Position numbers and translations under genes: made by a program. A DNA stretch of 64,000 nucleotides from a virus. The notes beneath the pieces are model-generated. The model saw nothing but the letters and a program-made list of their open reading frames with translations. It did not search any database and was not told the origin of the DNA. Shown one piece after another: positions 6,219 to 48,658 of the stretch. Each line of letters begins with the position of its first letter. Position 1 is the stretch's first letter. The DNA lies in IMG/VR virus record IMGVR_UViG_3300028557_000038, positions 1-64,000 of that record; one strand, given 5' to 3'.

Positions 6219-6631
6219 ACTAGTGATCAGTTACTAAGGCAGAAGGTGTGCGGTCGGACTATACGATGCAATAACACCGAATTAAATAATCGATTCGATC
6301 ATGCTTGCTACGGCGATGCGAATGTAACTAGTAATTACATTCAAGCGGTATTTCAAGGGCGCGGATTAACGATTACGAAAGTGATTGTGAATAGCAGTAG
6401 GGCTTAGGGAACGAAGTGTGGAGATCGTCATGTAATTAGTGACGGAATGTTTCTACTAGTGAATGCAGGTGGTAACCAATCCAACCGATTGCACATTGAA
6501 ACTAATTACAACAACAACGATCAGCACTTCTGCTTATGTGTTAATAGTGATCGATCATCGTAAACAATCAGCGAATTGTCTCGGTGATCGATCGCTATGG
6601 ATACATAATCGAATGTATTCAATCCACTAGT
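6219..6631. promoter_or_regulatory. Cluster of four ACTAGT sites
   Basis: ACTAGT palindromes occur at 6219, 6327, 6455 and 6626, with a fifth outlier at 5143. Flanks are similar (often GTA or CTA before, GA or AA after). Spacings are 108, 128 and 171 bases. Four copies of a six-base palindrome in about 400 bases just before an operon suggest an operator array. Confidence 0.4.
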
Positions 6632-13296: not shown

Positions 13297-13461
13297 ATGG
13301 GATACGCACAGATCATTCGTAGGGTAGAAGCCCACGAACTAACTAATTGCGATGATTGCGGAAATGACGAACTTACTTCATCAGGTAAGTACATAACTGA
13401 TTCAAGCGGTGAACCTGCTTTGTGGTTCTGCTTTAACTGCATTCATAAAACAACAAGATAG
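13297..13461 (+). CDS. Zinc-ribbon microprotein (54 aa)
   Basis: ATG directly after the previous stop with GGAGAAG upstream. C-D-D-C-G near residue 18 and C-F-N-C near residue 45 form a zinc ribbon. It is the last gene before the structured non-coding gap. Confidence 0.55.
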   Translation: MGYAQIIRRVEAHELTNCDDCGNDELTSSGKYITDSSGEPALWFCFNCIHKTTR

Positions 13462-13465
13462 ATTT

Positions 13466-13586
13466 ATCGAGCAGGGGTCAACATAGGGTTCAATCGGGTT
13501 AATTCATTTCCCGACTCCTTACCTGTGAAGGGCGATCATGATCGCATTCGATAGTTACGGCGTAGTCGTACCTGCCCCTGCTTGAT
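13466..13586 (+). ncRNA. Candidate structured RNA 1
   Basis: The two ends pair as a 12-bp closing stem (ATCGAGCAGGGG with CCCCTGCTTGAT, one G-U). Inside are three local hairpins: TCGGG/CCCGA (13494-13514), the 14-bp perfect palindrome GCGATCATGATCGC (13532-13545), and TACG/CGTA (13556-13570). It lies in a 290-base gap in an otherwise gap-free operon. The layout is cloverleaf-like but is not a tRNA by length or arm sizes. Confidence 0.5.
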
Positions 13587-13593
13587 TCCACTA

Positions 13594-13720
13594 TTGATAG
13601 AGATCATCGACACCTAGCAGATCGGCGATCTGTAAAGATGTTATGAAAATCTTGCAAGATCGCTGGTGCAACGAAAGATCAGCGCACGACATCGTCCTAC
13701 TTCTCGATGATCTCTATCAA
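13594..13720 (+). ncRNA. Candidate structured RNA 2
   Basis: A perfect 17-bp closing stem (13594-13610 with 13704-13720) encloses three hairpins in a row: CAGATC/GATCTG (13618-13632), AAGAT/ATCTT (13635-13653) and CGCTG/CAGCG (13661-13684). It begins eight bases after candidate 1 and shares its layout (closing stem plus three hairpins) without sharing sequence. A long DNA-level recombination or attachment structure is an alternative. Confidence 0.55.
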
Positions 13721-13748
13721 CTATTTAATTACCTAGAGAGGATTACAC

Positions 13749-13922
13749 ATGGAAACTGCACGACTATTTACAGTAGAAGAAAAGAATCTGATACTTCTTG
13801 CACGATTTGCACATGGTGAATCGTTGCAGAGCGTTGCTGATCGATTCGGTACAACTCGTAAACTAATTCGTCAATTAGAAAGCAATTACATGAAAATAAT
13901 GAAAGGGGAAGTAAATGAGTGA
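13749..13922 (+). CDS. Small helix-turn-helix protein (57 aa)
   Basis: GAGAGG lies upstream of the ATG. Residues 18-45 read as an HTH of the sigma-region-4 or resolvase type (L-Q-S-V-A-D-R-F-G-T-T-R-K-L-I-R-Q-L). Its stop overlaps the next gene. It sits directly after the structured RNAs and before the WhiB gene, suggesting a regulatory role. Confidence 0.55.
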   Translation: METARLFTVEEKNLILLARFAHGESLQSVADRFGTTRKLIRQLESNYMKIMKGEVNE

Positions 13923-14855: not shown

Positions 14856-15043
14856 AGGACTGGCTCACTACTACCGACATCGCACAACAAACAGGGCTAA
14901 AGATCAACACGATCTACACCTATCGAAAGCGCAACACCCTTCCCGAACCCGATCACATGATCGGCAATCGACCACTATGGAAGCAAGAAACAATCGATGA
15001 GTGGAACACTTATCGAACAACTCAAATCGAAATGGAGAAATAA
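14852..15043 (+). CDS. xis: Excisionase/AlpA-like HTH protein
   Basis: A 63-residue protein with a TTG start. The sequence W-L-T-T-T-D-I-A-Q-Q-T-G, I-N-T-I-Y-T-Y-R-K-R, then P-L-W-K-Q-E-T-I-D-E-W is the winged-helix MerR/AlpA-type (HTH_17) pattern used by recombination directionality factors. It lies about 400 bases before the integrase, so an excisionase role is a good inference. A small transcription regulator is the alternative. Confidence 0.65.
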   Translation: MKDWLTTTDIAQQTGLKINTIYTYRKRNTLPEPDHMIGNRPLWKQETIDEWNTYRTTQIEMEK

Positions 15044-15046
15044 TCT

Positions 15047-15274
15047 ATGGTTGCAAATGTAATCAGTAGCGAAACATCATCAACAACTCATGTGATCGAG
15101 TTTCCAATGAATGGAAACACTTTCACCGCCAAAGTATTTATTGGTGAGTGGGGCGTTGATGTCGATTGGTTTATTGGTGAGGACTTTATTGCGATCGATG
15201 ATCGCTGGAAGGTTCTGCCAACTGAACTCTATGATCTCGATGATTCAGATTGGGAAGAGATTCTCTATCCATAA
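15047..15274 (+). CDS. Small acidic protein
   Basis: A 75-residue acidic protein with Trp/Asp-rich C-terminal half (D-D-S-D-W-E-E-I-L). Three bases after the excisionase-like gene and before a strong terminator, so it ends the operon. Unknown function. Confidence 0.5.
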   Translation: MVANVISSETSSTTHVIEFPMNGNTFTAKVFIGEWGVDVDWFIGEDFIAIDDRWKVLPTELYDLDDSDWEEILYP

Positions 15275-15357: not shown

Positions 15358-15392
15358 GCCCCTAGCCCCCGATCGGGCTAGGGGCTTTTTTT
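15358..15392 (+). terminator. Rho-independent terminator
   Basis: GCCCCTAGCCC pairs perfectly with GGGCTAGGGGC around a six-base loop and is followed by seven T. It ends the 6.6-15.3 kb plus-strand operon before the integrase. Confidence 0.9.
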
Positions 15393-46477: not shown

Positions 46478-48658
46478 CTACACCGTCAGGTTGGTAAACT
46501 CCACCCCAGCAAATGAACGGAGACGCCAGAAAGAGTTAGGAGGAACCCAACCATCAAGCGTCTGTGCCAAACGAGGTATCTTAAAAGGCTTGTTAGGGTA
46601 TAGGTGTGTAGGAGATTCGTTAGGAGTGCCTTCCCATACAGCGCCAAATTGTGAGGCAAGGCTGCCGTCGTAGTAGTCAGAGGCAAATGGAGACGCCTCT
46701 AGTTGAACTGCATCAACCCATGCCTCTTCTCCTGAGTCTGCGTCAAACTCGATGGTCGCCGTTGCCGTCAGATCAACAGTGACATCATCTGCATCTACAT
46801 ATGTTGTGACTGTAAATCTTTGCCAATCAGTGCTGAGTGTAAACTCACTACTTACCTCTGCTGCTAATCCAACTCCATCATCTTCTGGTGTCAGAGTGAT
46901 CGTGCCAGTACTTGTTGTCGAGCCCTTAGCGTAGAAGGAAAATGTGTAGTACTTGTCTAGTACTGGTAGAGATCCAGTAGTTGTTTCTATAGTTGCTCCA
47001 GAAGAGATGTCAAGATTAAGTGACTCTGTTCCTCCACTGATGTCGTCTGGAGCAACAGAGACTACTGAACTATCGTCTGCTGTGATGATCCATTGATTTG
47101 TGTTTTCTTCAAATGACGGGTTCTTAATGTAATTAATCTTTGAAGAGTCAAGAAAGATATCGATTGCTCTTGCTTCGTCGTAGTCGACTGTGTCTCCTGA
47201 TTGAACACACACTTGATCTACGTAGTAGGTACCAGCAGCAGAGTATGAGATCCCAAGAGAGGCATACTTTGCTTCTAGAGTCTTTACTGAACCAGTGCCT
47301 GTTGCAGTTCCTGTGTAAGCGTTTGCAACTGTGAAGGTATCTGATGTAACCGCTGTGATAGTGACGTTACTTAAGTTAACGGCAGTTGTAGAAAATCCAG
47401 TGATTGTTACTACTGAACCAACAAGGTAGGTATGAGGATCGTCTGTGGTGTAGACAATAGAGCCTGATGACCCCACTGCTCCTGTCAACACTGCTGTTTG
47501 AGCCGCTGGTGCATCCGTGATAACGCTTGCACTCTTCCAGGTGTTGTTTGCAGCAACTGCTGTTCCTGCTTTGCTAAATAACAAGGTTGTATTCTTATCG
47601 TAGTAGTAGATTTGTGGAGTTATGTTTCCTGCACTTGTAGGAGACTTCAACTTCAAAGACATAATGTACTCGGTACCAGCCGTTACTGGAACGCCTTTAG
47701 TGATGGGCAGTAAGTTTCCAAGACTCATCAAACCTGCACCACTCGCAATGATCTTGCAGGTGTCTGTCCCGTCGATGACGTTGTCGCCAGTGTCTGCAAC
47801 TTGTTCTGTGCTTGATGAGAGAGTGGCGTTAGTTGCTGTCCAATTCCCTACTGAACCGTAGAACGTGCTGTCTTGTACAGATAGTAATAGGTTCTCAGAA
47901 AGAGTAAGTGTGGGTGCATACCCTGTTAGAGATTCTGCGTAAGTCTGGATACCGTCGGATAGACCTTTGTGAGTGTACATAAAAATTGCTTCACGAATAA
48001 GGCGCTTCTGATTTGTTACTGGAAGATTTGGTTCTAGATCTAAACCGAAGTTCAAAGTCTCAATAGGCAATAAAGCAAATGCACCAGACTCAAATGAGTG
48101 GTTAGGTCGTAGCAAGTCAATCTGAGTCAACAGTTGTTCGTAGGTAAATGACATACCTTCCATAAAGGCATACAGTGCTGAGTTCTCATCTGTTACACCT
48201 AATGGGCTTTGGATCTGGCTTGTGAATACTTTTGGAATAATATCCATAATTCTTTTTTGAGCATTATGATCTGAAGGGACAGTGTCTGTAATCTGTCCAG
48301 CCACTACCCAGTAACCAGCATCAATAAACAAAAACATACGATAGTAAACCTGTTGACCAGGAGTAATAGGTGGGATAGCAATTTCAGCATCATCAGAGTC
48401 AACGAAGGTTGATCGAGTCACAGTTCCTTCAGTTGCAGCCTCTTCCCAAACTACAATTCCATCTTCTGCTGTTTCTGGAAATCCTGTTTGATTTCTTACG
48501 AGACGGATCTTTGTAAAGTTTCCTGTTGGGGTTTGCCACTCAACACGTGTCTTGGTGAAGTCTAAGACCACCAAGTCCATCGGTTCAACAGAGAAAGCAA
48601 GTCGTGGTTGTAGTCCATACTTTGCACTTGCATAACTAAAATTACCGTAACGTGCCAC
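46478..48658 (-). CDS. Tail protein I-like baseplate protein with inserted sugar-binding-like domains
   Basis: A 726-residue protein. The first 270 residues include the tail-protein-I (P2 gpI) region: I-I-P-K-V-F, Y-A-F-M-E-G, and R-L-I-R-E-A-I-F-M-Y-T-H-K-G. The rest is Thr/Ser-rich beta sandwich with two repeats like carbohydrate-binding modules (N-P-S-F-E-E, W-x-R-F-T-V). It probably links the baseplate to receptor recognition. Confidence 0.7.
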   Translation of the reverse strand: MARYGNFSYASAKYGLQPRLAFSVEPMDLVVLDFTKTRVEWQTPTGNFTKIRLVRNQTGFPETAEDGIVVWEEAATEGTVTRSTFVDSDDAEIAIPPITPGQQVYYRMFLFIDAGYWVVAGQITDTVPSDHNAQKRIMDIIPKVFTSQIQSPLGVTDENSALYAFMEGMSFTYEQLLTQIDLLRPNHSFESGAFALLPIETLNFGLDLEPNLPVTNQKRLIREAIFMYTHKGLSDGIQTYAESLTGYAPTLTLSENLLLSVQDSTFYGSVGNWTATNATLSSSTEQVADTGDNVIDGTDTCKIIASGAGLMSLGNLLPITKGVPVTAGTEYIMSLKLKSPTSAGNITPQIYYYDKNTTLLFSKAGTAVAANNTWKSASVITDAPAAQTAVLTGAVGSSGSIVYTTDDPHTYLVGSVVTITGFSTTAVNLSNVTITAVTSDTFTVANAYTGTATGTGSVKTLEAKYASLGISYSAAGTYYVDQVCVQSGDTVDYDEARAIDIFLDSSKINYIKNPSFEENTNQWIITADDSSVVSVAPDDISGGTESLNLDISSGATIETTTGSLPVLDKYYTFSFYAKGSTTSTGTITLTPEDDGVGLAAEVSSEFTLSTDWQRFTVTTYVDADDVTVDLTATATIEFDADSGEEAWVDAVQLEASPFASDYYDGSLASQFGAVWEGTPNESPTHLYPNKPFKIPRLAQTLDGWVPPNSFWRLRSFAGVEFTNLTV

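What the first reader, a model, noticed from the sequence alone, without database searches (positions are those of the whole stretch)
13594..13720. Structured non-coding element 2 with 17-bp closing stem
A perfect 17-bp stem encloses three hairpins. It follows element 1 after eight bases and has the same overall plan but no obvious sequence identity. Two tandem elements with the same architecture suggest a functional pair, and a 17-bp perfect stem is most unlikely by chance.
Basis: seen in the sequence. Interest (0 to 1): 0.65.

Follow-up and report, generated by a model that had tools for sequence, protein, structure and literature searches.

The report
Paired structured RNAs in freshwater actinophages
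This 127-base stretch encodes a folded RNA kept by at least nine related phages of actinobacteria; it always sits seven bases after a second, much more widespread folded RNA, and neither matches any RNA family in Rfam, so both look like new phage RNAs whose job is still unknown.

Summary
Window 13594-13720 has a perfect 17-bp closing stem, folds far better than shuffles (z -6.3), and about 0.0006 such stems are expected by chance in this window. It is conserved: eight further phage records carry it, and 16 of 39 pairs show changes on both sides that keep the pair. G-U cells outnumber A-C cells 18 to 6, which points to RNA from the + strand. It matches no Rfam family.

The surroundings matter more than the element alone. 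Element 1 (13466-13586) belongs to a widespread actinophage RNA family of about 79 loci (core GUYAA / AAGGRCNNUCAYGA / NNGUACCUGC). It lies beside varied genes, inside a tRNA array and just before terminators, so it looks like a stand-alone RNA. Element 2 was found only downstream of element 1, with a spacer of exactly 7 nt in all nine cases. It is an optional module: close relatives have element 1 alone. The element 1 model does not detect element 2, so common origin is not shown.

Best explanation: a two-part phage RNA cut out of an operon transcript, acting in trans by binding a protein or RNA. A cis-acting leader of the adjacent sigma-region-4-like gene is the main rival. No transcript data were available.

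The parts
13594..13610 (+). Element 2, P1 5' arm (17 bp closing stem with 13704-13720)
   Evidence: All 17 pairs form in all nine sequences; 6 pairs have double changes
13611..13617 (+). Element 2, invariant unpaired segment CACCUAG
   Evidence: Identical in the eight sequences of alignment A1 and in L126
13618..13632 (+). Element 2, hairpin P2 (13618-13622 with 13628-13632)
   Evidence: Compensatory changes at two pairs; A-A mismatch in five sequences at one pair
13637..13642 (+). Element 2, P3 5' arm (pairs with 13688-13693)
   Evidence: Three consecutive compensatory changes in L126
13649..13660 (+). Element 2, apical palindromic hairpin AUCUUGCAAGAU
   Evidence: Invariant or nearly so in eight sequences; in L126 the loop UGCA becomes GAUC, again self-complementary
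13661..13684 (+). Element 2, hairpin P4 (13661-13667 with 13678-13684)
   Evidence: Five of seven pairs with double changes
13688..13693 (+). Element 2, P3 3' arm
13694..13703 (+). Element 2, conserved unpaired segment GUYCUACUUC
   Evidence: Conserved in all nine; no complement elsewhere in the window beyond chance
13704..13720 (+). Element 2, P1 3' arm
13587..13593 (+). 7-nt spacer between elements 1 and 2
   Evidence: Exactly 7 nt in all nine loci although its letters vary
13466..13586 (+). Element 1: partner RNA of a widespread family (P1, P2, P3 with bulged A, P4)
   Evidence: 58-sequence alignment, covariation score 0.601 against 0.167 shuffled and at most 0.10 slid; model R1 hits 79 loci; window score 78.7 bits
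13749..13922 (+). Downstream 57-aa gene, weak sigma-70 region 4 match (possible cis target under the rival explanation)
   Evidence: PF04545, 24.0 bits against a cut-off of 24.1
13297..13461 (+). Upstream 54-aa gene of the same operon
   Evidence: Homologues precede element 1 in most relatives
15358..15385 (+). Probable intrinsic terminator of the operon that holds both elements
   Evidence: 11-bp stem followed by TTTTTTT

Best explanation
Element 2 is a structured RNA made from the + strand as part of an operon transcript. It is the optional second module of a tandem pair whose first module, element 1, belongs to a widespread actinophage RNA family. Shown: the fold, its conservation, the + strand signal and the fixed coupling to element 1. 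Inferred: the long closing stems (13 and 17 bp) protect the two modules and let host nucleases, probably RNase III, free them from the mRNA. Inferred: the released RNA or RNA pair acts in trans, its invariant unpaired segments (CACCUAG and GUYCUACUUC) forming the binding site for a phage or host protein or RNA.
For: Covariation and near-complete pairing in nine sequences; sequence constraint concentrated in unpaired junction segments, as in protein-binding or ligand-binding RNAs. G-U cells 18 against A-C cells 6. Element 2 found only 7 nt downstream of element 1, although both elements vary in length. Element 1 behaves like a free RNA: varied gene contexts, inside an 18-tRNA array just before a tRNA-Met in L051, directly after a tRNA-like gene in L083 and L086, and directly before intrinsic terminators in L034, L050, L059, L100 and L102. 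No + strand promoter-like site just upstream of the pair, so it is probably cut from the operon RNA. A second phage, L048, has element 1 followed about 10 nt later by another stem-closed element and then a terminator, so tandem pairs recur.
Against: No transcript or processing data. Element 2 lies about 27-35 nt upstream of a homologous HTH gene wherever that was examined, as a cis-acting leader would. The free-RNA arguments come mainly from element 1. No binding partner is known, and element 2 is absent from several close relatives.
Confidence: 0.5

Rival explanations
1. Element 2 is a cis-acting leader of the next gene (57-aa sigma-region-4-like protein), for example an autoregulatory binding site or a translation-control element.
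For: It ends 28 nt before the start codon in the window, and a homologous gene follows in every locus where the downstream gene was examined, including the divergent L126. The P1 5' arm and the Shine-Dalgarno region share UAGAGA (13598-13603 and 13734-13739; sequence).
Against: Relatives with the same gene lack element 2 (L005, L006, L022). A 17-bp perfect stem is too stable to be displaced by the 6-bp alternative pairing with the Shine-Dalgarno region, so a switch is unlikely. L012 and L015 lack the UAGAGA Shine-Dalgarno motif.
Confidence: 0.27
2. The pair is an intercistronic mRNA processing or stability element: the stems are RNase III sites or exonuclease blocks that uncouple expression of neighbouring genes, with no function in trans.
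For: Same-strand genes on both sides; long perfect stems; element 1 often starts 3-13 nt after a stop codon and before terminators.
Against: Invariant unpaired junctions and conserved internal helices are more than such an element needs; element 1 also sits in a tRNA array.
Confidence: 0.13
3. A DNA-level inverted repeat (replication, recombination or protein site, or the ends of a small mobile element) with no RNA product.
For: Long inverted ends; present in some close relatives and absent in others.
Against: G-U cells 18 against A-C 6, internal helices covary, three P1 cells are G-U; found in no other place than after element 1.
Confidence: 0.05
4. It is a member of a known RNA class such as a Y RNA, a tRNA-like RNA or a prophage replication RNA.
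For: TROVE (Ro60) genes occur in 3 of 33 element 1 records, in one just upstream of element 1; element 1 adjoins tRNAs.
Against: No Rfam match; two of the TROVE phages have separate YrlA-like candidates; no TROVE in the window's record; the element 1 model fails on phage Alma's ori RNA region; ARAGORN finds no tRNA or tmRNA.
Confidence: 0.05

Closest known systems
Element 1 RNA family of actinophages (defined here; not in Rfam 15)
   Same: Tandem neighbour; same plan: closing stem, P2 hairpin, P3 helix with an internal loop leading to P4; same strand and operon
   Different: No detectable sequence homology by covariance model; different conserved core; element 1 is far more widespread
Y RNAs and YrlA (Rfam RF02553, RF01053)
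   Same: Small RNA with paired ends; three element 1 phages also carry TROVE genes
   Different: No Rfam match; two of those phages have separate YrlA-like candidates; no TROVE in the window's phage
Non-coding RNA of extrachromosomal mycobacteriophage prophages (Alma, LadyBird; PMC7157519)
   Same: Non-coding transcript of an actinophage
   Different: It lies upstream of parA in reverse direction and acts in replication; the Alma region does not match the element 1 model
Stable RNAs of unknown function in phage tRNA clusters, such as T4 RNA C and D (from general knowledge)
   Same: Phage small RNAs next to tRNAs, like element 1 in L051
   Different: No sequence relation was tested
GOLLD and ROOL ornate RNAs (PMC12286853)
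   Same: Structured bacterial and phage RNAs with unclear function that form homo-oligomers; the palindromic loop of element 2 hints at dimerisation
   Different: Those are several times larger and form other folds; no Rfam match here

Membership tests
Y RNA / YrlA (Ro60-binding RNA) | Match to a Y RNA covariance model | tested here: not met
   No Y RNA match in window 13440-13760 even at E up to 10
Y RNA / YrlA (Ro60-binding RNA) | Ro60/TROVE protein in the same genome | tested here: not met
   No TROVE in the window's record; 3 of 33 element 1 records have it
Y RNA / YrlA (Ro60-binding RNA) | Physical binding to Ro60/Rsr | not testable with these tools
   Needs co-purification
tRNA, tmRNA | ARAGORN or Rfam match | tested here: not met
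Any Rfam 15 family | Score at or above gathering threshold | tested here: not met
   0 matches in the window; none meaningful at E up to 10
Prophage RNA-based origin (Alma type) | Homology to the ori RNA region | tested here: inconclusive
   Element 1 model on the Alma region: best 7.5 bits, chance level; the element 2 model was not run on it
Element 1 family | Core AAGGRCNNUCAYGA ... NNGUACCUGC with P1 to P4 | tested here: not met
   At most 2.7 bits anywhere in element 2, against 78.7 for element 1
Cis-regulatory leader or riboswitch | Always upstream of the same gene class | tested here: inconclusive
   HTH gene follows where examined, but the same gene also occurs without element 2
Cis-regulatory leader or riboswitch | Alternative pairing that hides the ribosome site | tested here: inconclusive
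   A 6-bp alternative exists in the sequence but competes with a 17-bp stem and is missing in L012 and L015
Retron msr/msd RNA | Adjacent reverse transcriptase gene | not tested
   None among the neighbouring genes scanned with Pfam, but the genome was not searched for one

The most novel reading that the evidence does not exclude
Elements 1 and 2 form one two-domain, phage-encoded RNA machine: element 1 is the conserved core used across actinophages, and element 2 is a plug-in domain held at a fixed 7-nt distance that dimerises through its self-complementary apical loop or recruits a specific host protein during takeover. Pyrimidine-rich loops of element 1 that resemble the 16S anti-Shine-Dalgarno tail would aim the RNA at translation.
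Probability: 0.12. Interest if true: 0.85.

Novelty: new variant of a known kind. Interest (0 to 1): 0.55.

Why it matters
Structured RNAs of phages infecting the abundant freshwater actinobacteria are largely uncharted. The element 1 family appears in about 70 viral records and in some Microbacterium and Rhodococcus genomes, so it could be studied in culturable hosts. The covariance models give concrete RNAs to probe, and the presence or absence of element 2 among close relatives is a natural experiment on what the second domain adds.

Tried and rejected
Rfam at gathering and permissive thresholds: nothing. Homology of element 1 and element 2 by covariance model: none. Element 2 elsewhere in viral contigs: three patterns gave only one new true case, L126; L125 and L134-L136 are chance. 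Named phages: blastn found no element 1 or 2, although blastn at this sensitivity misses such short cores; Endor and Jace hits are chance; model R1 found nothing in 12 named actinophages, a search without a positive control among them. Y RNA idea: two TROVE phages have separate YrlA-like candidates. Anti-Shine-Dalgarno idea for element 1 loops: CCTTTC in 17 of 42 non-redundant sequences and the top 1-2% of permutations of the motif, but the motif was chosen after seeing the loops; no such loop is evident in element 2. Antisense targets of the invariant element 2 segments within the window: only chance level. A 7-residue ORF (MKILQDR) inside element 2 is not conserved in L126, where the palindrome is. 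Selection caveat: the element 1 sequences in A2 were chosen partly for a closing stem and a fixed core, so P1 pairing there is biased; P2, the last P3 pair and the synteny hits L017-L019, found without the pattern, are not.

Full report
WHAT IS THERE. The window is part of a 66,071-base virus record: a contractile-tailed phage (sheath and baseplate) with WhiB and a B12-dependent ribonucleotide reductase; WhiB marks it as an actinobacterial phage. Its CobT-like protein is nearest to those of Gordonia phages and its sheath to Streptomyces phage BRock, both distant. Element 2 lies between small genes that all run on the + strand, in an operon that probably ends at the terminator at 15358-15385. 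The 17-bp perfect stem is real, far beyond chance (about 0.0006 expected), and the strand folds much better than shuffles (z -6.25).

CONSERVATION. Relatives were fetched through neighbouring proteins and by pattern. Element 2 is in the window and in L002, L003, L007, L012, L015, L020, L026 and the divergent L126. On eight sequences 95.8% of cells pair, with 7 doubly changed pairs; structures slid by 1 to 3 columns give 0 or 1. With L126 added, 95.7% pair and 16 of 39 pairs have double changes, in P1, P2, P3 and P4. In L126 three consecutive P3 pairs and most of P4 are exchanged while pairing stays, and P1 remains fully paired. G-U cells (18) exceed A-C cells (6), as expected for RNA of the + strand. 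The letters that do not change are mostly unpaired: CACCUAG, AAAG, GUYCUACUUC; the apical hairpin AUCUUGCAAGAU stays palindromic (AUCUGAUCAGAU in L126). That pattern is typical of a binding site within a folded RNA (inference).

ELEMENT 1. The neighbour at 13466-13586 belongs to a large family. A pattern from its core gave 73 viral stretches, most of them true, and 14 genome stretches of which those from Microbacterium and Rhodococcus are true. The 58-sequence alignment has 19 of 26 pairs with double changes and a covariation score of 0.60 against 0.17 for shuffles and at most 0.10 for slid structures. The last P3 pair, not fixed by the pattern, pairs in 58 of 58 with five pair types. The model hits 79 loci, including L017-L019, which were reached by synteny and not by the pattern. 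Element 1 stands in varied contexts: after minor capsid genes, before a convergent ribonucleotide reductase, by a DnaB-like helicase, in an 18-tRNA array, abutting a tRNA-like gene, and before intrinsic terminators. It often begins 3-13 nt after a stop codon. It occurs in 8 of 149 Microbacterium genomes, consistent with prophages. Such a context-free, terminator-proximal element is best read as a stand-alone small RNA. WhiB occurs in 26 of 33 records tested, so the carriers are mostly actinophages.

COUPLING. In all nine cases element 2 starts exactly 7 nt after element 1, although spacer letters and the lengths of both elements vary. Relatives L004, L005, L006, L008 and L022 have element 1 without element 2 at the same place, and element 2 was not found elsewhere in the whole records that were searched. 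On a tree of flanking proteins its presence needs five changes, so it is gained or lost as a unit. In the unrelated L048, element 1 is followed about 10 nt later by another stem-closed element of 123-125 nt that scores weakly with the element 1 model (16.7 bits), then a terminator. Tandem pairs therefore recur, and duplication with divergence is a possible origin of second elements; for element 2 this is not shown.

MECHANISM. Committed view: a two-module phage RNA released from operon transcripts and acting in trans through its conserved junctions. Shown: the RNA-level fold, its conservation and the fixed coupling. Inferred: excision, trans action, partner. The chief rival is a cis-acting leader of the adjacent sigma-region-4-like gene, since a homologue follows wherever it was examined; against it, that gene also occurs without element 2 and the closing stem is too stable for a switch. 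A DNA-only repeat is unlikely.

KNOWN FAMILIES. No Rfam family matches. Y RNA was considered because TROVE genes occur in 3 of 33 element 1 records, in one just upstream of element 1, but two of these phages have separate YrlA-like candidates. The region of the RNA-based prophage origin of mycobacteriophage Alma (PMC7157519) does not match the element 1 model. Literature searches found no description of either element; the library is incomplete, so prior mention cannot be excluded.

Noticed in passing
L048 2043-2165 (minus strand): A second stem-closed element (14-bp stem, about 125 nt) starts about 10 nt after element 1 and is followed by an intrinsic terminator; it scores 16.7 bits with the element 1 model, perhaps a diverged tandem copy.
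   Followed up: partly
L051 2724-2810: Element 1 sits inside an array of 18 tRNA genes, a few nt before tRNA-Met.
   Followed up: partly
L151 1678-3306 and 777-890; L152 5628-5707, 6109-6227: Phage TROVE (Ro60-like) genes with YrlA-like RNA candidates nearby, below the Rfam gathering score, in records that also carry element 1.
   Followed up: partly
window 13466-13586 and family: Loops P2 and P4 of element 1 are pyrimidine-rich and resemble the 16S anti-Shine-Dalgarno tail (CCTTTC in 17 of 42 non-redundant sequences); post hoc.
   Followed up: partly
L010 and L013 (records G007, G010): Relatives in synteny in which element 1 was not found anywhere in the record; only 27 nt separate the flanking genes.
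   Followed up: partly
window 6534-6608: Imperfect 27-bp inverted repeat (81%) with a 21-nt loop, rich in GATCGATC.
   Followed up: no
window 46992-47056: 17-bp inverted repeat (88%) with a 31-nt loop.
   Followed up: no
window 14946-15102: 15-bp inverted repeat (93%) 127 nt apart, overlapping small ORFs, close to elements 1 and 2.
   Followed up: no
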